Below are positions 2,803 to 22,199 of a stretch of 22,407 nucleotides of DNA, piece after piece (positions within the stretch are counted from its first letter, which is position 1; every line of letters starts with the position of its first letter). The position numbers and the translations under genes were made by a program. The stretch lies in the IMG/VR virus record IMGVR_UViG_3300030106_003059, positions 1 to 22,407 of that record; one strand, written 5' to 3'. The notes under the pieces are model-generated. The model did no database searches and was not told the DNA's origin. It was given only the letters and a program-made list of their open reading frames with translations. This DNA comes from a virus.

Positions 2803-2989
2803 GACCTGGGTGCAGTTGTTGTTCCAGTTCCTCAACTGTCACACCTGCATCAGCAAAGGCATCGGACACAATTCCGCACAGTGCAGTAATCTCAAAGTCA
2901 CTGAGTTCCCAAAGATCACCAGCAACTTGAATCTGCTCTTGAATGTTCTCTGAAATGGTGAGAAGTTTGGTCAGTTCTGTAGCGTTCAT
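2795..2989 (-). CDS. Small helical hypothetical protein (64 aa)
   Basis: A 64-residue protein made of three likely helices: MNATELTKLLTISENIQEQI, LWELSDFEITALCGIVSDAF and TVEELEQQLHPGHA. Its ATG shares one base with the upstream stop (TGATG), and its end overlaps the next start by 8 bases. No motif recognised. The tight coupling on both sides is the main evidence, besides a natural-looking composition. Confidence 0.75.
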   Translation of the reverse strand: MNATELTKLLTISENIQEQIQVAGDLWELSDFEITALCGIVSDAFADAGVTVEELEQQLHPGHA

Positions 2990-3270: not shown

Positions 3271-3467
3271 TTGGAAACCTCAAATGTGGGGATGACTTTG
3301 ATCTCAATCCAGTTAGGATACTGTTTCATTGCCCACTTCTCCAGTTTGGTGTTATGGGATTTGATGCCCTTCTGGGTTTTAGGTCTGGTAGGCATGGTCC
3401 GGAAGACTGACAAGGTTCCCTCATCAGTCCTCACAGATACCAGATACTCGGCGGTGGTAGTGTTCAT
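3267..3467 (-). CDS. Small basic hypothetical protein (66 aa)
   Basis: A 66-residue basic protein in an otherwise acidic neighbourhood. It starts with a beta hairpin (AEYLVSVRTDEGTLSVFRTM), has a central Lys-rich segment (PTRPKTQKGIKSHNTKLEKW), and closes with WIEIKVIPTFEVSK. The Lys/Arg content suggests nucleic-acid binding, but I see no known domain. It shares one base with the stop of the preceding gene and 4 bases with the next start. Confidence 0.78.
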   Translation of the reverse strand: MNTTTAEYLVSVRTDEGTLSVFRTMPTRPKTQKGIKSHNTKLEKWAMKQYPNWIEIKVIPTFEVSK

Positions 3468-3634
3468 CAGAAGATGTTGGTCCAGCGTTCGTGTTGGATG
3501 GCGCTGATGCGTCCTTCCTTCAACAGGTTATCACAGACTTCACAGAAGACTGCAAACTTTTCGGTGCGGGTGAGTTCATATTCTTGGGCAGCTTCACAAG
3601 AACCGATGGTTTTGAGAACGTTTGCTTTGAGCAT
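3467..3634 (-). CDS. Small helical cyanophage protein (55 aa)
   Basis: A 55-residue frame reading MLKANVLKTIGSCEAAQEYE, then LTRTEKFAVFCEVCDNLLKE and a C-terminal helix ending HERWTNIF. The order (short strand, GS turn, two helices, QHERW..IF end) resembles a small protein family I recall from T4-like cyanophages, function unknown. Three cysteines (positions 13, 31 and 34) are present. Its TGA shares one base with the ATG of the next gene. It lies directly downstream of the left 18-base repeat. Confidence 0.72.
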   Translation of the reverse strand: MLKANVLKTIGSCEAAQEYELTRTEKFAVFCEVCDNLLKEGRISAIQHERWTNIF

Positions 3635-3656: not shown

Positions 3657-3674
3657 GATTACTTTGTAATCATA
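3657..3674. repeat. 18-base direct repeat, left copy (hairpin)
   Basis: The plus strand reads GATTACTTTGTAATCATA, identical to 4748-4765. It contains an inverted repeat (TGATTAC-TTT-GTAATCA in this copy). On the minus strand it holds the TGA stop of the methyltransferase-like gene and a 4-codon frame (ATG ATT ACA AAG TAA), followed by a purine-rich AAGGGAA sequence. With the right copy it brackets the nuclease/methyltransferase pair. Confidence 0.9.
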
Positions 3675-4233
3675 TCGGCAATACTGCCTCACTGCGCGTC
3701 CGCTGTGCCAGTTTGCGTTTTGGCACATCCAGTTCCTCCATAATGATTTGCTGTGGTAGGAAGTTCCAGCAATAGTAACTACTACTAAATGTAATCTTAT
3801 CGTTTGGTCTACCATCAGGAGAGTGAAACTTCATCCTCTTATCAAACATCAACAGTTGCAGATCCTTGTCCTTGAACAACTGCTTTGGTGCAGAATCATT
3901 CAACCAAGTGTTAGTCATAATCAACGCAAATGGTTTGTTAAATGACAGTGCCCGCTCAAAGAACTTACGCTTATTTGTAAACGGTGGATTAGATACAATC
4001 ACATCCCAATGGAATGGTTCCCACTGTAAAAAGTCCTTACCCTCATCAATGTGAGAGTATTCAACACTATGAGTCTGAGAGATTTGCTTGACAAACTCAC
4101 TCTCAGCAGTGTCAAACGGACACCAGACTTTAGCATCCTTTGGAATATACTTCAGGATGGGAGTGACACCGTAATTAGGTGTATAACACTCATCATTGTT
4201 ACCTGACGAGTACATAAGTTCTTTAGAATCCAT
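3670..4233 (-). CDS. N6-adenine DNA methyltransferase-like protein
   Basis: A 187-residue protein with the layout of a small, Dam-like phage adenine methyltransferase. Near the N terminus is NDECYTP (residues 13-19), where related proteins have DEWYTP. VWCPFDTAES (37-46) lies where the AdoMet-binding strand and loop are expected. DVIVSNPPF (77-85) contains the NPPF catalytic motif of N6-adenine methyltransferases. The AdoMet motif lacks a classical FxGxG. The frame can be extended to a TTG at 4251, but the ATG at 4233, two bases after the preceding stop, is the better start. It follows a nuclease-like gene directly, suggesting a restriction-modification-like pair. An RNA substrate or a sugar/nucleotide role cannot be ruled out. 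Confidence 0.78.
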   Translation of the reverse strand: MDSKELMYSSGNNDECYTPNYGVTPILKYIPKDAKVWCPFDTAESEFVKQISQTHSVEYSHIDEGKDFLQWEPFHWDVIVSNPPFTNKRKFFERALSFNKPFALIMTNTWLNDSAPKQLFKDKDLQLLMFDKRMKFHSPDGRPNDKITFSSSYYCWNFLPQQIIMEELDVPKRKLAQRTRSEAVLPI

Positions 4234-4235
4234 AA

Positions 4236-4736
4236 TCAACCCAGAATACAAGTACCAACAGCATAGATTTCATTCTTAGATATTGTAACACCAATACGGG
4301 GATCTTTTGCATTACCATTCTTCTTCTTAGGGTATTGTTTCTTTGCTTTGGGAAGAACGATTGCAAGAACATCATTACAATCAAGTTTCCACACTTCTAC
4401 AATCTTAGCACCTTCATATCGTGCATAGTAGTGGTTCTTGTATTTACCAATCTTATCTTCAATCAGATAAAGTTCTTGTTCTTCCCAAGTATCCTGAACA
4501 CTAATCCCATTATATGTTGCCTTGATAGAGTCTGAAATAGTTGATTTATATTCTGCACCACCATCTTCATCAAAAGCATCCGCACCACTATAATCATCCG
4601 CGATACGATGACCCAGCATCCCCGCCATATAGATCTCACGGGAGCGAGCATAAGAGAATGGATCGCCCCATCCATTGTTCTCGCAAAGATCGTACATTTC
4701 CTCGTAGAGTGCCCGATAGCGTGCTTCAGGGGTCAT
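4236..4736 (-). CDS. Candidate PD-(D/E)XK nuclease-like protein
   Basis: A 166-residue protein. Residues 34-65 read EIYMAGMLGHRI..DDYSGADAFDEDGGAEYKS. A helix carrying Glu34, then Asp53, then Glu62-x-Lys64, matches the PD-(D/E)XK pattern of restriction endonucleases (D-X8-E-x-K). It is followed by strands (HYYARYEGAKIVEVWKL) and a Lys-rich segment (PKAKKQYPKKKNGNAKD) that could touch DNA. The ATG has a good ribosome binding site (AAGGAA, 4 bases upstream). The gene ends 2 bases before the methyltransferase-like gene. Motif placement is by eye; the fold is inferred. It could be a restriction partner, a host-DNA degrading enzyme, or an inactive relative. Confidence 0.7.
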   Translation of the reverse strand: MTPEARYRALYEEMYDLCENNGWGDPFSYARSREIYMAGMLGHRIADDYSGADAFDEDGGAEYKSTISDSIKATYNGISVQDTWEEQELYLIEDKIGKYKNHYYARYEGAKIVEVWKLDCNDVLAIVLPKAKKQYPKKKNGNAKDPRIGVTISKNEIYAVGTCILG

Positions 4737-4747
4737 TGCTTCCTTTC

Positions 4748-4765
4748 GATTACTTTGTAATCATA
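4748..4765. repeat. 18-base direct repeat, right copy (hairpin)
   Basis: Identical to 3657-3674 (GATTACTTTGTAATCATA on the plus strand). On the minus strand it contains the TGA stop of the metalloprotease gene (4761-4763), a GATTAC/GTAATC stem with a 3-base loop, and runs into the AAAGGAA ribosome binding site of the nuclease-like gene. Confidence 0.9.
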
Positions 4766-5243
4766 CAGGTGAACACAGTCGGTTGGCAAACGCAGTGGAC
4801 GGTTCCTCAACTGGCACACCAAATGTGTCAGTCAACCACCAGTTGTATAATCTCTCTTCTTCTTCCCGTGCCTCAACTTCATGTGGTTGATGCCAATAGT
4901 CCCAATTTTCTACTGGTGTTTTGCAATAACACAATTTTCCATAACGATGACGCAGTGAACCACGGATCCACTGCGCCAGGTGCGTTAATTCATGCAAAAG
5001 AGTCTGAATATACAACTCCTTTGTCATGTAGGTGTCAAGTTCAATCAAAAAGTCACGGGGGCGATAAGGATCTGCCCACGATGCAACATCACAATATCCA
5101 AGAACAAGTTCTTCTTTCAAATCACGGTGAATAATCTCCACATCAATTTTGTGACGTGGAAAGAAGTTATTCAGAAACCAGGAGGTAACATCCTCACAGA
5201 GTTCTTCAGAATAACCGTATCCAGAATGAGTGATGAAAGACAT
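4761..5243 (-). CDS. Zinc metalloprotease-like protein (HExxH, SprT-like size)
   Basis: A 160-residue protein with HELTH at residues 84-88, the zinc-binding and catalytic HExxH motif. A likely third ligand lies in HEVEAREEE (Glu122 or Glu124). The segment ahead (DFLIELDTYMTKELYIQTLL) is the usual strand and helix leading to the motif, as in SprT-like and related minimal metallopeptidases. There is no signal peptide, so it probably acts in the cytoplasm; the substrate is unknown. It sits just upstream of the nuclease/methyltransferase cassette, and its stop lies in the right 18-base repeat. No alternative ATG occurs before the motif, so the start is fairly secure. Confidence 0.83.
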   Translation of the reverse strand: MSFITHSGYGYSEELCEDVTSWFLNNFFPRHKIDVEIIHRDLKEELVLGYCDVASWADPYRPRDFLIELDTYMTKELYIQTLLHELTHLAQWIRGSLRHRYGKLCYCKTPVENWDYWHQPHEVEAREEEERLYNWWLTDTFGVPVEEPSTAFANRLCSPV

Positions 5244-5311
5244 GTGCCCCAGTGCATTAACCAGATGAATGAACCAACAAAGATGAGTTTTTCCCTACCA
5301 GACATTTTCAT
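5171..5311 (-). CDS. Possible small membrane protein (46 aa)
   Basis: A 46-codon frame starting MKMSGREKLIFVGSFIWLMH and continuing WGTCLSSLILDTVILK, with one clear membrane segment (residues 9-30). Its ATG shares one base with the stop of the HNH-like gene upstream (TAATG), which argues for a real coupled gene. Against it, the last 73 bases overlap the start of the metalloprotease gene in another frame, and there is no Shine-Dalgarno sequence. The real product may be shorter or absent. Confidence 0.35.
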   Translation of the reverse strand: MKMSGREKLIFVGSFIWLMHWGTCLSSLILDTVILKNSVRMLPPGF

Positions 5312-5661
5312 TAGTAGTGTCTATACTTAGTTTGCCAACATTTAGTACAGAGACAAGTCCTTGATTCCATCTCTTTTTGAATGGTCTCACGACTCTTACT
5401 ACCAACCATTTCGGATACTTGATCCATTCTACTCAATGTAAGAGTCAAATCATAGAATCCAAGTTTGTCATACTCTTTTGACCCACAATCTTCACATTGA
5501 TACTTACCCTTCTCTTTCTTGAACCACTTTTGAGTATTTCTCTTTGATTCAAGTGACCTTGACTTCGTTAATTGCTTGTTACGTTCATACCATTCTTTCC
5601 TCTGCTGCTTCTTCTTTGTCTCGGAAGCAGTCAATGGTCCAATCAGTTTTGGTCTTCCCAT
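5311..5661 (-). CDS. Degenerate HNH-type zinc protein
   Basis: A 116-residue basic protein. The N-terminal half is Lys/Arg-rich and helical (ETKKKQQRKEWYERNKQ). The C-terminal half has two Cys pairs, C56-x2-C59 (YQCEDCGS) and C105-x2-C108 (CLCTKC), spaced like the zinc-holding cysteines of HNH endonucleases. Where active HNH proteins have a His-His or Asp-His pair and a final His, this one shows FYDL and CW, so the catalytic residues seem to be lost. It may be a DNA-binding relative. The start is fixed by GGAGG six bases upstream of the ATG at 5661, inside the end of the preceding gene; a longer frame to 5688 is not needed. Confidence 0.72.
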   Translation of the reverse strand: MGRPKLIGPLTASETKKKQQRKEWYERNKQLTKSRSLESKRNTQKWFKKEKGKYQCEDCGSKEYDKLGFYDLTLTLSRMDQVSEMVGSKSRETIQKEMESRTCLCTKCWQTKYRHY

Positions 5662-6388: not shown

Positions 6389-6422
6389 GGCACACAGGTG
6401 CCTCTCAGAGGGTCTGTGTGCC
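6389..6422 (-). terminator. Long intergenic hairpin, possible terminator
   Basis: A perfect 9-base inverted repeat (GGCACACAG / CTGTGTGCC) encloses a second small stem (CCTC-TCA-GAGG). On the minus strand it is followed only by TTTACAAT, so the U-tract is weak. It starts 3 bases after the stop of the 6425-6838 gene. It could be a weak terminator, an RNA-processing site or a 3'-end stabiliser. Confidence 0.5.
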
Positions 6423-6424
6423 AG

Positions 6425-6838
6425 TTATCCAACTGTCCCAGCAGGGATCTCAACAGGTTCAGGTGCTACATTATCTTCCCACTGATGCATATCGTAAGCA
6501 AACCACTGTCCGTTGCGGAAGATGTAAGAGTATTCTTCATTATCAGTGAAGAACTCCTCCATATCTTTATCCAAACGAGGTGCATTGTCTTCAATAGATT
6601 CACCACGGGAAGTGTAGTGAAGAGGACCAGATTCGGGGAGAGTTTCATTCTTCCATCCTGTATTTGTCCAAGTGCAGGACATGTTACCACCGTTAATCAG
6701 TTGCGATGCTTTCTCTTTCGTATCGTAGAACTCACGGAGAACTTTACCATTGAAAGAAGGATAACCATCATAATGGCAATAAACAGAAAGAATAGAGGCG
6801 TCACTGAGTTCGATTCCGATGCGTGAACGAGTTCCCAT
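6425..6838 (-). CDS. Conserved-type phage protein, MGTRSRIGIE family (137 aa)
   Basis: A 137-residue protein opening MGTRSRIGIELSDASILSVY. This N terminus and the following CHYDGYP are typical of a protein widespread in tailed phages and some bacteria, of unknown function. It has several aromatic residues in the C-terminal part (YSYIFRNGQWFAYDMHQWED). It is the first gene after the sigma70-like promoter at 6938-6966, with a leader of about 90 bases. Its stop lies inside a small CAGTT-ATCC-AACTG hairpin that has a near copy at 6975-6995. Confidence 0.8.
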   Translation of the reverse strand: MGTRSRIGIELSDASILSVYCHYDGYPSFNGKVLREFYDTKEKASQLINGGNMSCTWTNTGWKNETLPESGPLHYTSRGESIEDNAPRLDKDMEEFFTDNEEYSYIFRNGQWFAYDMHQWEDNVAPEPVEIPAGTVG

Positions 6839-6966: not shown

Positions 6967-6973
6967 GGGTGCT
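6948..6973 (-). terminator. Strong intrinsic terminator
   Basis: On the minus strand AGCACCC-TTGACT-GGGTGCT is followed by a run of T. It is a 7-base GC-rich stem with a 6-base loop and a U-tract, a textbook factor-independent terminator. It lies just after the 51-residue gene (6985-7140) and closes the long transcript that carries cp12. Confidence 0.9.
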
Positions 6974-6984
6974 GTGACAGTTAT

Positions 6985-7140
6985 TCAACTGTCCCTGTTT
7001 CGGTAGTAAGTGCTCTCACACTTGTAGTAAATTCGTAATTGGATGAACTTTGGATCTTTGTATTCGGTTTGTTTCGGTTTACAGTATTGTCTGTTTGGAT
7101 TGCGATGGATTAAGATGTGATCGTATTTGGATGGACTCAT
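6985..7140 (-). CDS. Small basic hypothetical protein (51 aa)
   Basis: A 51-residue frame reading MSPSKYDHILIHRNPNRQYC, then KPKQTEYKDPKFIQLRIYYK and ending YYRNRDS. It is rich in Tyr, Lys and Arg, unlike the acidic neighbours, and could bind RNA or DNA. An AGG sequence lies 7 bases before the ATG. The gene is followed by the intrinsic terminator after 11 bases, as expected for the last gene of an operon. It is supported by composition and position only. Confidence 0.5.
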   Translation of the reverse strand: MSPSKYDHILIHRNPNRQYCKPKQTEYKDPKFIQLRIYYKCESTYYRNRDS

Positions 7141-13590: not shown

Positions 13591-14478
13591 TCAGTATGCT
13601 TGCTGTCCTATTCCACCAGCACCACCAGATCCATTACTTTCTTTTTTGTTTTTTCCACCAGTAGCATTTGCACCTTCTCCACCATTAGAACCACCATTAC
13701 CACCGCTGCCGCCTTCTGCCTCAGAATCGTCCTCTCCTGCGCGACCAGATCCACCGGTCGTTAGATTTCCCGAACTACCTCCACCATTTCCACCACCACC
13801 AGTTCCGGCAGGGAGTCCATTTCCTCCTCCACCGCCACCACCTTCGGCGTCATTTCTATCACCCCAGTCATTTTGCTCTGCCCTGGAACCTCCTCCACCG
13901 CCACCGCCACCTGCGGTGATATATCCCAAATTGTTAATTGTTGCGCCAGACAAATATCTTAATCCATTAGATCCAGCTCCACCATTACCACCACTATTAC
14001 TTCCACCATTACCACCTCTACCTGCGACAACTCCATCAGAACTAACATCAATCGTCATAGATGTATCAGATGGCCAGTATGCAGAATTTCCAGTCTGAAA
14101 TGCCCAGTCACTAGAAGATGCACCATCACTTCTGTATGTACCAGTTATGTTGATAAAGATTTTTTTTCCGCCCTGCCATGAAGTAGAATTTCTTGTTGGT
14201 TGAGATCTAAGTCCACCAATAACAACACTATCATTATCATAATCTGCAGAGGCAAGAGTGCCACCTTCACATTTAACGACGATATTTAATTTTTTACCAT
14301 AAAAATCACTAAATTTAATCTGACCAGATTGAGGGACACTAGTGTCTAATGGTAAGTTTGATAATGAACCTACAGATTGAGAGACACGGAAAGCACCAAG
14401 ATTTTTACCCGAGGGCATTCCGAACTCATTAGTAATTTCAGTAAATGATAGTGATGATCCTGAACTTTTAATAGTCAT
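13591..14478 (-). CDS. Glycine-rich tail-fibre adhesin-like protein
   Basis: A 295-residue protein in two parts. Residues 1-70 form a small module (LSFTEITNEFGMPSGKNLGA ... SGQIKFSDFYGKK), a type often found at the start of phage tail and particle proteins. From about residue 150 the sequence is dominated by glycine runs (for example AGGGGGGGGS and GGGGGGGNG) with Ser, Asn and Asp between them. Glycine-rich loops on a small base recall the gp38-type receptor-binding adhesins of T-even phages, but no homology can be shown here. The start at 14478 shares one base with the stop of the fibre gene upstream (TAATG); a longer frame to 14496 is unneeded. Host recognition is the likely role. Confidence 0.7.
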   Translation of the reverse strand: MTIKSSGSSLSFTEITNEFGMPSGKNLGAFRVSQSVGSLSNLPLDTSVPQSGQIKFSDFYGKKLNIVVKCEGGTLASADYDNDSVVIGGLRSQPTRNSTSWQGGKKIFINITGTYRSDGASSSDWAFQTGNSAYWPSDTSMTIDVSSDGVVAGRGGNGGSNSGGNGGAGSNGLRYLSGATINNLGYITAGGGGGGGGSRAEQNDWGDRNDAEGGGGGGGNGLPAGTGGGGNGGGSSGNLTTGGSGRAGEDDSEAEGGSGGNGGSNGGEGANATGGKNKKESNGSGGAGGIGQQAY

Positions 14479-16304
14479 TAGTGTAAGTCTACCCAAGAAC
14501 TACCGACATAAACTTGAAGTTTATTATCTGTTGTATTGTAAATAACAGACCCTGTAGCTGTTGCAATCCCGGTTGAATACAAATTATTTCTAGTTGTCGT
14601 GGTCATATTGGGGAAAACAGCAGGTCTTTGTGCAAACTTCAAGTCTAAAGAGTTTGTGGGATTTGTGGTCCCAATTCCCACGCCACCAGCGTCTGTAACT
14701 ACAAATTTGTTTTGAGCTTCAGAGTTTACATTTACAACAACATCCGATGCTACTCCAACTGCTGAAGCACCAACTCTTACAGAAAATACAGGAACATCGG
14801 TATATCCTGTTCCAGAAACCTCTAATTTAGTTATTGTGGAAGCTCCACCAACAACTCTTGCCTTTAATTCGGCAGTTTCTGCTGGATCTTGATTGGCAGA
14901 AGGAACTCTAAGAATTACATTACCACCATTTGCAGATTCAACATTACCTCTCAAAGATGCGGTGATGTTTGCACCAGAACTTAGGTTAAGATTTCCACCC
15001 ACTGTCAAGTTACCACCAGTTTCTACGGTAGTTTCAAAATATGCAGCACCAGTGAATGTAGAAATACCCTGAACACTTAACAAATGTGCCGGATCTGTTA
15101 TTCCTATTCCTAATCTACCCTCTTTAGTAAGGGTCATTAAACGAGAATTGTTTGCTCCTTTATGCCAATGGAAATCTCCAGTAGCAGCATTTGAATTAGC
15201 AGCACTCAGATGGAAATTAAAATTATGTGCACCATAATTGATTAAATCTAACGATGTGTCATTACTATATGGGAAACCGGAACCACCTCCATATCTAAAT
15301 TCTGCATTATCTGTATTGCTAGTTCCTGGTTCTCTACCAACAGTTACACTTGCCGTTGAAGTATCGCTCGTAACCTGAAGTTCTGTGGCACCAGTAGCTC
15401 TCTGTTGGAATGTGTTGGCAGGTGAGGCAGTTCCAATTCCTAAGGAGGATACTGTTAGTGATGTTCCAACAATAGATGTTGTTGTAATAGATGTTGCTGT
15501 AATAATACCTACACCACTTGTAAGATTTACAGAATTTGCTGTAATCTGTGAAGCGGAGACAGTTCCAACTGTAATGTTGGGCGAACCTATCAGACCTCTG
15601 GCAGTTGTGGCAATACCAACAACATTGCCGGTTACATTTCCTGTTAAATTACCACTAAAACTTCCACTAAAAGTGGTTGCTGTGATGACACCAAGAGTTG
15701 CTGTAATGTTGCTACCAACTTTCAGGTCAGTGAATGTAGAAACACCTGTGGAGTTTATATTTCCTCTGACAGCACCAGTAAACTTATCTCCGACAAATTG
15801 GGTAGCAGTGACAACACCAGTTGCTTTGATGTGACCCAGAGAACTGATACCGACACCACCAGGAAGAGTTCCAGCAAGTAATGGATTTCCACCAACTTGA
15901 AGATCTATCTGAGGATTGTTGGTTGCTATACCAACAAATCCTGTTTTGCGATAGATACTACCACTAACAGTTACCCATTGTGATGTTGGAATGTTCGTTA
16001 AATTTGAACCATCACCATAATAAGTAACAACACCAGAAACAGCAGTAACAATACCTGCCGTGTCAACATGTAAATTACCGATGGAACCTGAAGCAATCGT
16101 AGTTACACCAGTTACTTCTAAGTTCTTGATAATACCACTTGATGCAGTAACGAGACCGACAACTTTAGCAGTTCCTCTTACATCCAAGAGCTCAGTTGGT
16201 ATGGTAGTACCGATACCAACCAAGCCGTTAGCGTTTACAACTAAGTTATCATCATCAACTTGAACACCATTACGAAAATTAAACGATTTTCTATAATTCG
16301 CCAT
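14478..16304 (-). CDS. Tail-fibre-like repetitive structural protein
   Basis: A 608-residue protein composed of short beta repeats typical of phage fibres and other elongated virion proteins. Recurrent units include GVVTATQFVGD, YYGDGSNLTNI, GNLTGNVTGNVVG, and VGIGTTNP/LGIGTASP-type turns. The N terminus (MANYRKSFNFRNGVQVDDDN) probably joins the fibre to the particle, and the C terminus (SVIYNTTDNKLQVYVGSSWV) is a common fibre-end motif. I see no enzymatic domain. A late promoter motif lies just upstream, overlapping the stop of the large gene before it, and a CAGAG ribosome binding site precedes the ATG. Confidence 0.85.
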   Translation of the reverse strand: MANYRKSFNFRNGVQVDDDNLVVNANGLVGIGTTIPTELLDVRGTAKVVGLVTASSGIIKNLEVTGVTTIASGSIGNLHVDTAGIVTAVSGVVTYYGDGSNLTNIPTSQWVTVSGSIYRKTGFVGIATNNPQIDLQVGGNPLLAGTLPGGVGISSLGHIKATGVVTATQFVGDKFTGAVRGNINSTGVSTFTDLKVGSNITATLGVITATTFSGSFSGNLTGNVTGNVVGIATTARGLIGSPNITVGTVSASQITANSVNLTSGVGIITATSITTTSIVGTSLTVSSLGIGTASPANTFQQRATGATELQVTSDTSTASVTVGREPGTSNTDNAEFRYGGGSGFPYSNDTSLDLINYGAHNFNFHLSAANSNAATGDFHWHKGANNSRLMTLTKEGRLGIGITDPAHLLSVQGISTFTGAAYFETTVETGGNLTVGGNLNLSSGANITASLRGNVESANGGNVILRVPSANQDPAETAELKARVVGGASTITKLEVSGTGYTDVPVFSVRVGASAVGVASDVVVNVNSEAQNKFVVTDAGGVGIGTTNPTNSLDLKFAQRPAVFPNMTTTTRNNLYSTGIATATGSVIYNTTDNKLQVYVGSSWVDLH

Positions 16305-16322
16305 CTCTGGATGCTTTTCTAG

Positions 16323-19300
16323 TTATTTATGGTGCTCATCAACTTTCGCATTAAGTTGTTTGATTGCCTCAATGAGCAGAGGCACAAGTTTTTCATAACG
16401 AACCGCCATGTATCCATCCTCTCTAGTTGTATAGAGACCTGGTAAATCAAGACCTGCAACTTCCTGAGCGATGACACCAATGTCAAGTCCTTCTTTATCG
16501 GACTTATCATTCCATTCAAATGTATTACCACTAAGACTTAAGACCTTAGCGATAGCATCTTCAATAGGTTCAACATTATCTTTCAATCTTTGGTCAGAAG
16601 AGGAGAAGGCGATAAGATCACCTGTAAACGTACCATTACCAGCAACCGAAAGATTACTAGCAACCGAAAGAGCACCAGCAACCGAAAGAGCACCAGCAAA
16701 TGTATGGGTGCCAGTTCCATTAACATCAAGGTTGTCATTGACTACGAGTGTGCCACCAGCAGAGTCAAGAGTGAGATTACCAGTTGTGGTATCAATCGTG
16801 TTATCTGTAGTATCAGCAATTTGGATATTACCGAAGGTAGCACCAGTTGCTAAAACTGTACCAGTTACATTAACACCAGTGGTGTTTGCCTGGATTCTAG
16901 TTGTTCCATTAGCATCTACAAGTGATGTTTGGTCAATACCTGTCAGATTTGAACCATCACCAAAGAAACTGGTGGCAGTGACATTACCACCAACATGGAG
17001 GTTCTTATCAATTCCGACACCACCATCTACAGTCAGAGCACCAGTTCCAACACTGGTAGACTGAGTAGTGTCAGTGATGTTGAAGACACCTCTAACTTTT
17101 ACAGAAGCATCAACATCAATGTCTTCGTTGAACTTTGTCTCGCCATTGAAAGTAACAGGACCATCAAACTGAGACAGAACTGTGCCAGAGTTACCACCCT
17201 CAACAATAAGTCTCTCTTTGACGATAACTTCATCAAAGACTACACTGTTGACGCTAGTATCTTCACCAGTTACAGTTGGGATAGGAATATCAAAGGTCTT
17301 CTCTTTACCGGTGGCAGAGTTAATCTTCTTGTTACCGATGTAGAAGTCACCATCGTTGTTCATACCAGTGTAAACAACGATACCACAATTCTTCTCTTGT
17401 GCTTGTGCCAGAGTCTCCTCTTCTTCGTTCAGAGATCTGACCTGAACTTGAGGAAGTGCGGTAGAATAGTTACCTGGACCATAACCAAGGTATTCAAATG
17501 TATGACCAGATGCTCTCAAATATGTTGGTCTGTGGAACTCAATCGCCTTGAGTTCAACTTTCTTGATGAGTGCTCCACCAGAATGATTCTCCTTAACTGT
17601 ACCCATGGCACCACGGATAACAGTCATTTCATTACCACCAGAGCCACTTAAGACATTGCTGGTGACTCGCATAATCTCATTGTCAACTTGGAAGTAAGAA
17701 CCAAGTTCAAATCTAGCAGCGGTGGCAACACCAACATTTGTCGTCTTGACGTGAATGGTGGTCTCATCACTAATGTTGGACTGGAGAATAGCAGTCTCAT
17801 TACCGAAGAACGACAGACCTCTAGAACCAAGGTTTTCACCATTCTTATCAGATGTCAGATCATTAGCAGAAAGTCCATGCTTCAGCAAGAACTTAGGTCC
17901 ATGGATTATAACACCAACACCAACATTTGCTGTGACTGTGGTTGTGGTGACACCAGTTACATCATAATGTCCAAGGTTAGCGTCACTGCTATTCTTGATG
18001 GTCAGTCTATTACCAACTACGAAACCGTGTGGTTCAGTTGTTGTGAATGTAGTGATACCAGATGTAATTGTGGTGGTCGCAGTAGAAACTGTAATCTCAG
18101 GAGCAATGTTGATAAGATACTGACCCTGAATTGGTCTAGCATCAGTGTTACTGATGGCAATGGCAACCTGATTCTTACTAGGAACACCAGTGATTCTGAA
18201 GTGTCCGCTAGTGTGAGTGCCAATACCAGTCAGTTGAATTGTGTTACCAATGACAGTAGAGATTCCAGAGGTAGTAATAGTAATACCACCACCAGTTCCA
18301 CTACCAACTCTAGAAGTATCAAAATCTAACTCTTCATTGTTTGTGTATCCAGAACCACCAGAGGTGATGTCAACATTAGATACAGCACCATTAGCAACAA
18401 CAACTCTTGCTGTAGCACCGTCCCATGTGAATGTACCGTTGTTTAACAGTTTGACGTTGTGATATGTGCCGTTTGTATATCCAGAACCACCAGTCAGGGC
18501 ACTGTAAGTTACAATACCGTTGAAGTTGTGGTTCTCATGGAATGTAATCGTGGCAACACCAACAGTGTTTGATGTGAAGGATGTTGTGACACCAGAAATA
18601 GTAAGACCAATACCAAGTGTAGGAAGAAGACTGTCAATACTTTCTCTAGTAATACTCTTCTTCAGGTCACTTGTTGTTACATCACCGACTGGTGATCTCA
18701 TTGCAAAGGATTGAGCAGACTCTGGATCGTCATCTACATTATCTTTATCCTGTTGTGGATAAAGATCATCAACTTTCTGACTGAAGTAGTGTGATGTATA
18801 TTCTGTAGGAATCTCATTATTAGCGTTCAGAACATACAGGTGGTAGATACCATCACTTACATTCTCAACATATGGTGTGATGACTTCGTTTCTATAGATG
18901 TAGAAGTTACCTTTCCAGTCAGTTCTCTCAAATCTAGGTAGAGCAATCGTTCTGGTGCTGGTATTGTTAGTGAAGATTCCACCATTATGGGTGATGCTAT
19001 CAACGTCAGTTGTGGAGTGGGTGAATGTCTTTTCATTAGGAATAGAAAGAACAGTGAAGACACCATTGTATCCTTTGTTCTCAGTGCCAGCGGTATTACC
19101 TGTGCTGGTAACATTCTTAATTGTAATCTTTTCACCAACTTTGATGTTGTGTGGAATCTCCGAAATTACAGTTACAGTAGAACCTGAAGTAGAACAGGTG
19201 CTGATGAACCTTGGATTTCTATTGAAGTCTGGATCAGAAGTTGTGATGCCAGTAGCAGTGAAGTCAGAGTCAGATCTCAAAGATGTAGTGCTGGATTCTT

Positions 19301-21734
19301 GAATAACAAATCCTTCCTCTGGTTCCTTACAATTTGTGAGTTCCTTAGGAACGACAACTCTCAACTTATACAGTTTCTCATCAAGACTTCTAGAATCCTC
19401 TTTTCTCTTGATGAAACTGTTTGTTGTTCTAGTTCCAAGAGTTCCTGTGCCTTGAGTATTGAAGGCATTGTAGATCGCATTACCAGTAGAAGATTTGATA
19501 AACCAGTTGCCATTACCTGCGTCAAACTGAATCGGAGAACCAATCTCACCAGAACTCTTTTCAGAAACTCTACTACGAACTCTTAAACTTGTGCCACCAT
19601 AAAGTGTAATTGCCTCATCATTCTCTGCATTAGTAAGAGATGCTGCGACCTTAATGGTGGTTGCACTTGCCTTGATAGCAAAATAAACCTTATGTGCTTC
19701 AATGTTCTCTGGAAGATCTCCGGTGTCACTGTTGATGATAATCTTCTCACCAGTAATGAGTTTGTGAGATCCAATAGTGAAGGTGCTGTTGTTTACTAAC
19801 GTTACCTTATATTCTTTGACAGAACTGGTCTCGCCAAGGGCAGAAGTAATACCGGTGGTGCTGATCTCGTTATCAACCATGAGAACATCAGCAGTGTAGG
19901 TGGTTCCAGAACCTACAAAGGACAATTTCTCGTTCAGTTTGGCACCAACACGATAACCTTGAATCTTGTGTGGTGGTTTGATATTCTTGTCATTGAACCC
20001 GAAGAGATACAGGTGACTGGAGATACCAACAGAAGTTGTCAGACCAACGTCAAGAGTTACCCAATCAATATCCTCTTCTTTAGTTGTAACTGCTTTAGGG
20101 GTGATAACAGATGTGATGTATCCCTTATTATCTTTGCTAAACGCTGCTTTCTTAAATCCAACACCATTCAGAGAAATTTGTCCAAAGTTAGAGTTGGAGT
20201 TTGTGATGCTCATGTCAGCACCATTTCTGCCATCAAAATGATAGGCAAAACCGATAGCAAACACAGAAACAATCTGCATGAATGAATCGTTAGAACCTTT
20301 GATGTGAGAACTCTCCCATCCAATTCTATACTGTGCTTCACTGTCTAAATGATAAACCTTTGTAGCATCAGTAGATGAAGAACCACTAGCAAGAGCAGCA
20401 CCAGTCACCTTAGATACGCTGATGCCCTCATAAACTCTAGAAGACTCATTATACTTAACGAATGCTCTATCGTCCTTCTGAAGACCAACAGCGGTGAACT
20501 GAGCGACAACCATGGAGCGGAATCCAGTTGCCTTACTACCATCAGCGTGCATACCGTTCATGCCGAAGACGGAACGGAGAGAGATGTTAAAGATGTATGG
20601 AGAGGCACCCTGGACTGTATCAGTCTCAATAGTGACAGTAGAACCAGAAGCACTTGGAGATGCAGTCAGGTTATTTCTAACAAATGGGAGCAAGAACGTA
20701 AATGTTCTAGCATCAGTAACGTTTTGAACCGTGGTAGCGATATTATAATCTTCTACACTGACACCTTTAATTTTGATAGGTGTTCCAGTTGTCAGTTTGT
20801 GGTCGGTGCTGGTTGTTACTGTGATGACACTGCTTGGTGTAAAACCATCACCAGAGATGATACTGGAGATATTGACAGGATCATCAGCAAACGCACCAAC
20901 GATTTCAAATTCTGGACGCTTGGCAGCAAAACCAAGTGGATCTGCTGGCCACTTCTGGTCAATGTTTCTACCGGTCTCAGTGTTGTAAGCATTAGAGAGC
21001 TTACTATAATACATTGCCAGGTCAGAAATAGTGTAACCAGTTGGAATGGTTACACCATCAGCATATTCAAATACGGTAAGTTTGTGGTGAGAGAATGTAG
21101 GTGTGGCAGTGTTTGCTGAAGAGAAGTCCTGACTGTCTGTATAAACAGTTCCACTCTGATCACCATCAAAGATGGAGAACTGCCAGAAGTAACAAGTACC
21201 AGTTACCCTGAAAATTGCAGTTCCAGATAAGTTAGTATCTGTTGGGTTTGGTACGTATTTTGGTCTAATTTTAGTCTTTCTTAAGTCAAGACCAACAATA
21301 GAAGTGCCACGAGGTACAATAACACCACCGTGAATACTATTAAACTTGTAGAGAATATTATCTTCTTGAGTTAAATCAAATGTAGAATCTGTAGTTAATG
21401 TAAGAGTTGTCTGAGCACTTGTTGTAGCACCAGAAGGAGAAACAGCAGTCGCGGTTCCGTTTACATCCTTGATTGCAAAACCAGGTCTATTATCAATAAC
21501 ATGCTCTCCTGGATACAGAAGAATGGTTGTTTTCTCAATAATATCGTTATCACTTCCCCTCAGATAGGAGAATCTCGCTGCCTCTAGCAGTGCTCTCTGG
21601 ACAGTCTTGAATGGTTTCGTTAAAGAGTTTCCCTGATTCTCAATCGCGTCAGTAGCATCAAGGTCACTTGGGTTTACATAAAGAATACGACCCTCAGTAT
21701 TCTTTATAAAGTTTTCCAGTTTATTAAGAGGCAT
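16323..21734 (-). CDS. Giant virion fibre protein with S74 chaperone domain
   Basis: An 1803-residue structural protein. The N-terminal part (RILYVNPSDLDATD, PFKTVQRALLEAARFSY) is typical of a right-handed beta-helix (pectin-lyase-like) domain. The long middle consists of beta repeats rich in Thr, Ser, Gly and Val, with shorter fibre units near the C terminus (FFGDGSNLTGID, GGNVTATSF). The last 91 residues form an S74 intramolecular chaperone: SDQRLKDN begins at about Ser1713, and the Ser1713/Lys1718 dyad is placed as in endosialidase-type autoproteolysis. After assisting trimer folding, this end is expected to cut itself off before Ser1713. Distal fibre or spike role inferred; it is preceded by a late promoter. 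Confidence 0.88.
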   Translation of the reverse strand: MPLNKLENFIKNTEGRILYVNPSDLDATDAIENQGNSLTKPFKTVQRALLEAARFSYLRGSDNDIIEKTTILLYPGEHVIDNRPGFAIKDVNGTATAVSPSGATTSAQTTLTLTTDSTFDLTQEDNILYKFNSIHGGVIVPRGTSIVGLDLRKTKIRPKYVPNPTDTNLSGTAIFRVTGTCYFWQFSIFDGDQSGTVYTDSQDFSSANTATPTFSHHKLTVFEYADGVTIPTGYTISDLAMYYSKLSNAYNTETGRNIDQKWPADPLGFAAKRPEFEIVGAFADDPVNISSIISGDGFTPSSVITVTTSTDHKLTTGTPIKIKGVSVEDYNIATTVQNVTDARTFTFLLPFVRNNLTASPSASGSTVTIETDTVQGASPYIFNISLRSVFGMNGMHADGSKATGFRSMVVAQFTAVGLQKDDRAFVKYNESSRVYEGISVSKVTGAALASGSSSTDATKVYHLDSEAQYRIGWESSHIKGSNDSFMQIVSVFAIGFAYHFDGRNGADMSITNSNSNFGQISLNGVGFKKAAFSKDNKGYITSVITPKAVTTKEEDIDWVTLDVGLTTSVGISSHLYLFGFNDKNIKPPHKIQGYRVGAKLNEKLSFVGSGTTYTADVLMVDNEISTTGITSALGETSSVKEYKVTLVNNSTFTIGSHKLITGEKIIINSDTGDLPENIEAHKVYFAIKASATTIKVAASLTNAENDEAITLYGGTSLRVRSRVSEKSSGEIGSPIQFDAGNGNWFIKSSTGNAIYNAFNTQGTGTLGTRTTNSFIKRKEDSRSLDEKLYKLRVVVPKELTNCKEPEEGFVIQESSTTSLRSDSDFTATGITTSDPDFNRNPRFISTCSTSGSTVTVISEIPHNIKVGEKITIKNVTSTGNTAGTENKGYNGVFTVLSIPNEKTFTHSTTDVDSITHNGGIFTNNTSTRTIALPRFERTDWKGNFYIYRNEVITPYVENVSDGIYHLYVLNANNEIPTEYTSHYFSQKVDDLYPQQDKDNVDDDPESAQSFAMRSPVGDVTTSDLKKSITRESIDSLLPTLGIGLTISGVTTSFTSNTVGVATITFHENHNFNGIVTYSALTGGSGYTNGTYHNVKLLNNGTFTWDGATARVVVANGAVSNVDITSGGSGYTNNEELDFDTSRVGSGTGGGITITTSGISTVIGNTIQLTGIGTHTSGHFRITGVPSKNQVAIAISNTDARPIQGQYLINIAPEITVSTATTTITSGITTFTTTEPHGFVVGNRLTIKNSSDANLGHYDVTGVTTTTVTANVGVGVIIHGPKFLLKHGLSANDLTSDKNGENLGSRGLSFFGNETAILQSNISDETTIHVKTTNVGVATAARFELGSYFQVDNEIMRVTSNVLSGSGGNEMTVIRGAMGTVKENHSGGALIKKVELKAIEFHRPTYLRASGHTFEYLGYGPGNYSTALPQVQVRSLNEEEETLAQAQEKNCGIVVYTGMNNDGDFYIGNKKINSATGKEKTFDIPIPTVTGEDTSVNSVVFDEVIVKERLIVEGGNSGTVLSQFDGPVTFNGETKFNEDIDVDASVKVRGVFNITDTTQSTSVGTGALTVDGGVGIDKNLHVGGNVTATSFFGDGSNLTGIDQTSLVDANGTTRIQANTTGVNVTGTVLATGATFGNIQIADTTDNTIDTTTGNLTLDSAGGTLVVNDNLDVNGTGTHTFAGALSVAGALSVASNLSVAGNGTFTGDLIAFSSSDQRLKDNVEPIEDAIAKVLSLSGNTFEWNDKSDKEGLDIGVIAQEVAGLDLPGLYTTREDGYMAVRYEKLVPLLIEAIKQLNAKVDEHHK
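16324..16330 (-). promoter_or_regulatory. T4-type late promoter motif (ATAAATA)
   Basis: The minus strand reads CATAAATAAC, overlapping the last codons and TAA stop of the 1803-residue gene (CAT AAA TAA). It lies 20 bases before the ATG of the fibre-like gene at 16304. Confidence 0.6.
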
Positions 21735-22109: not shown

Positions 22110-22114
22110 TTTAG

Positions 22115-22199
22115 TGCGAGTAGGGAGACTTGAACTCCCACGACCGTGATGGTCAACAGATTTTAAGTCTGGTGTGTCTACCGATTCCACCATACTCGC
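22115..22199 (-). tRNA. trnL-UAA: tRNA-Leu (anticodon UAA)
   Basis: An 85-base type II tRNA. Acceptor stem GCGAGTA / TACTCGC is perfect, box A reads TGGTGGAATCGG, and the anticodon loop is CTTAAAA (anticodon TAA). A long variable arm (GACC...GGTC) follows, and the T arm is GGGAG-TTCAAGT-CTCCC. The CCA end is not encoded. The sequence closely resembles bacterial tRNA-Leu(UAA). Phage tRNAs of this kind support translation of AT-rich codons such as TTA in the virion genes downstream. Confidence 0.95.

What the first reader, a model, noticed from the sequence alone, without database searches (positions are those of the whole stretch)
3657..4765. Nuclease/methyltransferase-like pair bounded by identical 18-base repeats
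Seen in sequence: two adjacent genes, one with a D-X8-E-x-K pattern (Asp53, Glu62, Lys64), the other with NDECYTP and NPPF methyltransferase motifs, lie exactly between two identical 18-base direct repeats (3657-3674 and 4748-4765). Each repeat holds a stop codon of the gene before it and forms a small hairpin. Recombination between the copies would remove the pair cleanly and leave both neighbours intact. Known: PD-(D/E)XK nucleases and N6-adenine methyltransferases form restriction-modification systems. Inference: this may be a movable restriction-modification-like or anti-competitor module in a cyanophage, or a phage DNA marking plus host DNA degrading pair.
Basis: partly seen in the sequence, partly recalled or inferred. 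Interest (0 to 1): 0.8.

Follow-up and report, generated by a model that had tools for sequence, protein, structure and literature searches.

The report
Swappable nuclease-methyltransferase cassette between phage promoters
In this cyanobacterial virus a PvuII-like DNA-cutting enzyme and a DNA methyltransferase form a restriction-modification-like pair; the two identical repeats around it are the cores of two copies of the phage's own promoter-like element, and relatives carry other such pairs, or none, at the same place.

Summary
In detail: identical 18-base repeats at 3657-3674 and 4748-4765 bound two minus-strand genes. The nuclease (166 aa) folds like PvuII: confident AlphaFold model, first 12 PDB matches all PvuII, Asp53/Glu62/Lys64 invariant in 34 homologs. 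The second protein is a class I NPPF methyltransferase. The repeats are not transposon ends. Each is the -10/palindrome core of a composite element: a 24-bp palindrome (TGTGCCAGTT-N4-AACTGGCACA), then 29 nt, then TATGAT, then GATTAC-AAA-GTAATC overlapping it, then the start codon. The window holds five such elements, and the palindrome recurs in many marine cyanophages. The upstream palindrome and the stop codon lie inside the 3' end of the preceding gene.

Metalloprotease-element-p55 junctions without the pair exist (L108, L115, L121), as predicted. Beyond the prediction, the same site in relatives carries other nuclease+methyltransferase sets (MutH-like with Dam, PDDEXK_11 with Dam, others). 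Best reading: an early-expressed, exchangeable restriction-modification-like module that spares phage DNA while cutting host or competitor DNA, shuffled by recombination between repeated promoter elements (PeSL-like). Biochemical activity, pairing specificity, promoter activity and timing are inferred.

The parts
4236..4736 (-). PvuII-like PD-(D/E)XK nuclease gene, 166 aa; catalytic candidates Asp53, Glu62, Lys64
   Evidence: phrog_35715 E=3.2e-85; invariant residues in 34 homologs; AlphaFold pLDDT 91.4; Foldseek first 12 hits all PvuII, probability 1.00
3670..4233 (-). class I amino-methyltransferase gene (NPPF), 187 aa
   Evidence: phrog_799 DNA methyltransferase E=2.3e-37; Pfam Eco57I 8.6e-5, below its cut-off; model resembles TrmM, METTL5 and METTL16
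4748..4765 (-). repeat copy before the nuclease: TATGATTACAAAGTAATC on the minus strand; holds the metalloprotease stop codon
   Evidence: sequence; sigma-70-like TTGCCA-18-TATGAT, 10 of 12 positions
3657..3674 (-). repeat copy before the 55-residue gene; holds the methyltransferase stop codon
   Evidence: sequence; context statistics
4795..4818 (-). upstream palindrome of the nuclease element, TGTGCCAGTT-GAGG-AACCGTCCAC, 29 nt before TATGAT, inside the metalloprotease gene
3704..3727 (-). upstream palindrome of the p55 element, TGTGCCAAAA-CGCA-AACTGGCACA, 29 nt before TATGAT, inside the methyltransferase gene
4761..5243 (-). SprT-like metalloprotease (HExxH), upstream neighbour
   Evidence: phrog_10499 8.1e-44; Pfam SprT-like E=0.001, below its cut-off
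3467..3634 (-). 55-residue downstream neighbour (p55)
   Evidence: phrog_336 4.1e-24
2820..2843 (-). further copy of the palindrome, followed after 29 nt by TATACT
6417..6440 (-). further copy of the palindrome, followed after 30 nt by TACAAT
6973..6996 (-). further copy of the palindrome, followed by a terminator-like stem with T-run and, at 29 nt, GATATT

Best explanation
The cassette is an exchangeable restriction-modification-like module of a T4-like cyanophage. The methyltransferase marks the phage genome, and the PvuII-like nuclease cuts DNA lacking the mark: host chromosome, competing phages, or both. Each neighbouring transcription unit starts with a copy of the same composite element (24-bp palindrome, 29 nt, TATRAT overlapping GATTAC-N3-GTAATC, then the start codon), which most likely acts as an early promoter. 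The element is embedded in the end of the preceding gene, so the stop codon of the methyltransferase and its last residues are read from the promoter of the next gene. Because near-identical elements recur along and between genomes, homologous recombination between them adds, removes or swaps whole modules without damaging neighbours. Shown: the fold, the conserved pair, element recurrence and spacing, pair-free junctions, and alternative pairs at the site. Inferred: promoter activity and timing, enzymatic activities, shared recognition sequence, target DNA, and recombination as the mechanism.
For: Fold: AlphaFold pLDDT 91.4; PDB hits 1-12 all PvuII; active-site residues invariant. Pairing: of 64 nuclease loci, 51 have the MTase directly downstream, 10 have it after one intervening gene, 3 lack it (one cut by the contig end); among sequenced cyanophages the nuclease and close MTase relatives occur in exactly the same six records. 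Element: TAT precedes 79 of 111 GATTACGGAGTAATC sites against 4 of 63 control sites; of 139 elements, 109 have the AACTGGCACA half-site, 80 of them at exactly 29 nt and 14 at 30, against 25 scattered in shuffles; palindrome found 6 times in the window against 0.07 expected and enriched in P-SSM2, S-SSM7, S-PM2 and S-SRM01. Swapping: pair-free junctions L108, L115, L121; alternative pairs next to the same metalloprotease; the element precedes modules A, B, C' and E with 0 of 200 shuffles as good.
Against: No enzymatic, transcript or methylation data. The MTase is often found without the nuclease (26 of 62 loci). In P-SSM2 the two genes lie about 7 kb apart. One 317-kb contig has the nuclease and no such MTase. 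The MutH-like module is not preceded by its own element and S-SKS1 does not keep the 29-nt spacing. Flanks of the pair-free loci are only about 70-85% identical to pair-bearing loci, so no single recent excision is documented. Foldseek TM-scores to PvuII are 0.52-0.62, so specificity cannot be carried over.
Confidence: 0.62

Rival explanations
1. The two enzymes do separate jobs: the methyltransferase is an anti-restriction mark, and the nuclease is a general host-DNA-degrading enzyme whose self-avoidance does not depend on it. They share only promoter and neighbourhood.
For: MTase common without the nuclease; nuclease and MTase 7 kb apart in P-SSM2; one long contig with the nuclease but no such MTase.
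Against: 61 of 64 nuclease loci have the MTase downstream on the same strand; different nuclease families at the site also come with MTases; the fold is that of a sequence-specific Type II enzyme.
Confidence: 0.2
2. The nuclease is a modification-dependent enzyme (BisI/Eco15I/NhoI-like, related to PvuII in fold) that attacks modified DNA of hosts or competing phages.
For: Eco15I and NhoI are the next Foldseek hits after PvuII (E 7e-4 and weaker).
Against: PvuII fits better and over more of the chain; no extra reader domain is seen in the 166-aa model.
Confidence: 0.08
3. The repeats are ends of a dedicated mobile element (transposon-like or site-specific recombination boundaries).
For: Identical repeats on both sides and pair-free junctions with one copy.
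Against: The same element precedes many unrelated genes at a fixed distance to the start codon; no recombinase gene is recognised in the cassette; the pair also exists in clades without the repeats.
Confidence: 0.05
4. The GATTAC-N3-GTAATC palindrome acts mainly as an RNA hairpin (mRNA stability or translation control) rather than as part of a promoter.
For: It folds as RNA, sits between stop codon and start codon, and two copies are co-directional within what could be one operon.
Against: The preceding TAT, which has no pairing role, is conserved; all 54 intergenic GGA-loop copies have an extended -10 TGn and 11 of them a T-run terminator just upstream; the upstream palindrome keeps 29 nt spacing.
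Confidence: 0.15

Closest known systems
Type II restriction-modification systems, PvuII type
   Same: PvuII fold, D-X8-E-X-K site, adjacent DNA-methyltransferase gene
   Different: in a lytic-type phage genome; the methyltransferase is NPPF/Eco57I-like rather than the N4-cytosine type that partners PvuII; no sequence-detectable homology to PvuII in the PDB sequence search
Virus-encoded restriction-modification systems of chloroviruses and marseilleviruses (PMC7253447)
   Same: virus carries nuclease plus methyltransferase; proposed roles are host DNA recycling (chloroviruses) or attack on competing viruses (marseilleviruses)
   Different: bacteriophage, unrelated genes, modules swapped at one promoter-bounded site
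PeSLs, the promoter/terminator cassettes that mediate modular shuffling in T4-like phages (Arbiol 2010, Comeau 2014, cited in PMC4503421; originals not held)
   Same: repeated regulatory element between variable genes, sometimes with a terminator, serving as recombination joint
   Different: here a long upstream palindrome at fixed 29-nt spacing, overlap with the preceding coding sequence, and a second palindrome across the -10; PMC4503421 thought PeSL shuffling unlikely for the S-PM2 region it studied
Early-gene regulatory element of cyanophage Syn9 (Doron et al. 2016, from memory; paper not held)
   Same: reported as a novel, widespread T4-like cyanophage element
   Different: could not be compared with the element described here; it may be the same thing

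Membership tests
PvuII-like PD-(D/E)XK Type II restriction endonuclease | PvuII fold | tested here: met
   Foldseek: first 12 hits PvuII, E 5.8e-5 to 6.2e-4, probability 1.00
PvuII-like PD-(D/E)XK Type II restriction endonuclease | conserved D...E-X-K active site | tested here: met
   D53, E62, K64 invariant in 34 sequences
PvuII-like PD-(D/E)XK Type II restriction endonuclease | detectable sequence similarity to known REases | tested here: not met
   no Pfam, NCBIfam, PADLOC or PDB sequence hit
PvuII-like PD-(D/E)XK Type II restriction endonuclease | sequence-specific DNA cleavage | not testable with these tools
   needs purified protein
DNA amino-methyltransferase | class I fold with (D/N/S)PP(Y/F) catalytic motif | tested here: met
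   NPPF invariant; phrog_799; class I methyltransferases by Foldseek
DNA amino-methyltransferase | acts on DNA rather than RNA or protein | tested here: inconclusive
   Pfam DNA-methylase hits below cut-off; closest PDB folds are RNA or protein methyltransferases
Restriction-modification system | nuclease and methyltransferase genes linked | tested here: met
   61 of 64 nuclease loci
Restriction-modification system | methylation blocks cleavage at the same site | not testable with these tools
   needs biochemistry or methylome
PeSL-type shuffling cassette | repeated promoter-like element at joints of exchanged genes | tested here: met
PeSL-type shuffling cassette | terminator stem-loop part of the element | tested here: inconclusive
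   T-run upstream in 11 of 54 intergenic GGA-loop copies, none in stop-overlapping copies; present at 6973-6996 and in P-SSM2

The most novel reading that the evidence does not exclude
T4-like cyanophages keep a dedicated early-gene slot beside a SprT-like metalloprotease in which unrelated nuclease-methyltransferase pairs (PvuII-like, MutH-like with Dam, PDDEXK_11 with Dam, others) are exchanged by recombination at a composite promoter written into the 3' ends of the genes, giving each phage lineage its own restriction specificity against hosts and rival phages.
Probability: 0.4. Interest if true: 0.78.

Novelty: new variant of a known kind. Interest (0 to 1): 0.62.

Why it matters
If true, abundant ocean phages carry interchangeable restriction-modification-like weapons, something known mainly from algal and amoebal giant viruses. 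That would bear on how cyanophages destroy host DNA, exclude rivals and diversify. The composite promoter gives a concrete handle on how T4-like cyanophages shuffle genes cleanly, a question PMC4503421 left open for S-PM2.

Tried and rejected
Sequence searches with the nuclease found nothing in Pfam, NCBIfam, PADLOC or PDB sequences; only the fold placed it. No relative of the nuclease was found in the scan of about 85,000 bacterial and archaeal species genomes, so a recent bacterial donor was not identified. The hairpin-only and mobile-element-end readings were dropped after the element proved to be a widely repeated promoter-like sequence. TATGATTACNNNGTAAT itself is rare in isolate genomes; the upstream palindrome is the widespread part. 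Thermus phage phiYS40 carries a related MTase, but the gene before it shows no resemblance to this nuclease by inspection. The papers defining PeSLs and the Syn9 early element are not held.

Full report
What is there. The window is a 22.4-kb viral contig whose closest sequenced relatives are T4-like cyanophages. The two 18-base repeats are real and identical, and the two genes lie exactly between them on the minus strand. In transcription order the genes run: SprT-like metalloprotease (4761-5243), repeat, nuclease (4236-4736), methyltransferase (3670-4233), repeat, 55-residue gene (3467-3634).

The nuclease. It belongs to phrog_35715, a family of unknown function, and matches nothing in Pfam, NCBIfam or PADLOC. 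An alignment of 34 homologs shows Asp53, Glu62 and Lys64 invariant. The AlphaFold model has mean pLDDT 91.4, and its first 12 PDB matches are all PvuII, followed by Eco15I and NhoI. From general knowledge, PvuII uses Asp58, Glu68 and Lys70, almost the same spacing. The fold and active site are therefore well supported; cleavage and specificity are inferred.

The methyltransferase. It matches phrog_799 (DNA methyltransferase, 2.3e-37) and weakly Eco57I and EcoRI methylases. NPPF is invariant. The model is weaker (pLDDT 77) and resembles class I methyltransferases such as TrmM, METTL5 and METTL16. DNA as substrate is likely but not proven.

The pair. Of 64 nuclease-bearing loci in the viral contigs, 51 have the methyltransferase directly downstream and 10 have it after one more gene; that gene encodes a protein with DGQH or NGNHT-like motifs, one kind with weak ParB-like similarity. 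Three lack it: one is cut by the contig end, one is an 18-kb contig, one is a 317-kb contig. In the annotated phage collection the nuclease is in P-SSM2, P-SSM5 and P-TIM68 only, and close relatives of the methyltransferase are in the same records. The reverse does not hold: 26 of 62 further methyltransferase loci show no nuclease nearby, although 3 of 20 such records carry it elsewhere. A nuclease that rarely occurs without its methyltransferase, while the methyltransferase can stand alone, is what restriction-modification would give.

The repeats are promoter-like. I scanned the viral contigs for the repeat (74 stretches), for a loop variant without flanks and for a control of the same composition. 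The variant is preceded by TAT in 79 of 111 distinct sites, the control in 4 of 63, and a start codon usually follows 10-13 nt downstream. In intergenic copies of the variant all 54 have an extended -10, TGnTATGAT, and 11 have a T-run just upstream. The consensus revealed a second conserved box, AACTGGCACA, further upstream. Of 139 elements in the fetched loci 109 have it, 80 of them exactly 29 nt before TATGAT and 14 at 30; shuffled upstream sequence gives 25, scattered. The box is one half of a palindrome TGTGCCAGTT-N4-AACTGGCACA. In the window this palindrome's 20-bp core occurs six times at up to three mismatches, against 0.07 expected. Five of these sit on the minus strand in front of a -10-like hexamer at 29 or 30 nt, including both repeats. 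It is also enriched in isolates: 15 against 2 reversed-control matches in P-SSM2, 14 against 1 in S-SSM7, 17 against 3 in S-SRM01, 7 against 0 in S-PM2; other isolates show little or no excess, for example S-SM2 and S-CAM1. In P-SSM2 the nuclease is preceded by the same palindrome, a terminator-like stem, and TATAAT at 29 nt.

Consequence for the genes. In both window copies the palindrome lies within coding sequence: codons of the metalloprotease C-terminus and of the methyltransferase C-terminus. The methyltransferase residues after about 167 are no longer conserved, and 173-186 have pLDDT below 50. I infer that this tail is promoter sequence read as protein. The stop codon TGA lies inside TATGAT.

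The site is a hotspot. Junctions with metalloprotease, one element and the 55-residue gene but no pair occur in L108, L115 and L121; flank identity to pair-bearing loci is about 70-85%, so this shows an unoccupied form rather than a dated excision. Next to the same metalloprotease I found other sets: B, a 191-aa protein (PADLOC REase_II 5.3e-5) with an N6_N4 methyltransferase (4.4e-31) in L026 and L011; C, a MutH-like protein (NCBIfam MutH 1.3e-6, far below the equivalog cut-off) with a Dam methyltransferase (1.3e-19) in L028, L034, L108, L115, L177 and L250; C', a PDDEXK_11 nuclease (8.9e-6, above cut-off) with Dam in L056; D, in S-SKS1, a 176-aa protein with a PD-(D/E)XK-looking motif (by eye) and an N6_N4 methyltransferase; E, ResIII helicase, Eco57I-type methylase and two more proteins in L073, L077 and L103. 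The composite element precedes A, B, C' and E with none of 200 shuffles as good; it does not directly precede C, which follows the 55-residue gene, nor D at this spacing.

How it works. I commit to an exchangeable restriction-modification-like module under an early promoter, with shuffling by homologous recombination between repeated promoters. Precedents: PeSLs in T4-like phages, known to me through PMC4503421, which cites the original work and judged the mechanism unlikely for the S-PM2 'ORFanage'; and virus-encoded restriction-modification in chloroviruses and marseilleviruses (PMC7253447), where the roles are host DNA recycling and attack on competing viruses. I cannot tell which target applies here.

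Limits. All functional steps are inferred. The element may be the early regulatory element that, from memory, Doron et al. reported for Syn9 in 2016; that paper is not held, so I cannot claim the element as new. Contigs are fragments, so absence statements are weak. The module count rests on families partly recognised by weak profile hits.

Noticed in passing
L019, L022-L024, L051, L053, L063-L065, L067 (between nuclease and methyltransferase): A third gene with DGQH or NGNHT-like motifs lies between the pair in ten loci; one kind matches DUF6551 and weakly a ParB-like phage family. In L341 such a gene stands in place of the nuclease.
   Followed up: partly
L073, L077, L103 next to the metalloprotease: A four-gene set with ResIII helicase, Eco57I-type methylase, a 193-210-aa unknown protein (phrog_7683) and a short N6_Mtase-like protein, possibly a larger restriction-like system.
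   Followed up: partly
window 5311-5661: HNH endonuclease-like gene (phrog_3106, 1.1e-7) beside the metalloprotease; relatives also next to it in L036 and L049.
   Followed up: no
L372, L397, L412: Proteins that look like GIY-YIG homing endonucleases (by eye) near the same site.
   Followed up: no
P-TIM68 gp049-gp051 (L001): The nuclease gene is flanked by two methyltransferases, one of them N6_N4 type (3.3e-58).
   Followed up: no
window 13591-21734: A very long (1803-aa) protein and a glycine-rich protein, probably tail-fibre region, with many imperfect internal repeats.
   Followed up: no
window 22114-22199: tRNA-Leu (TAA) gene on the minus strand.
   Followed up: no
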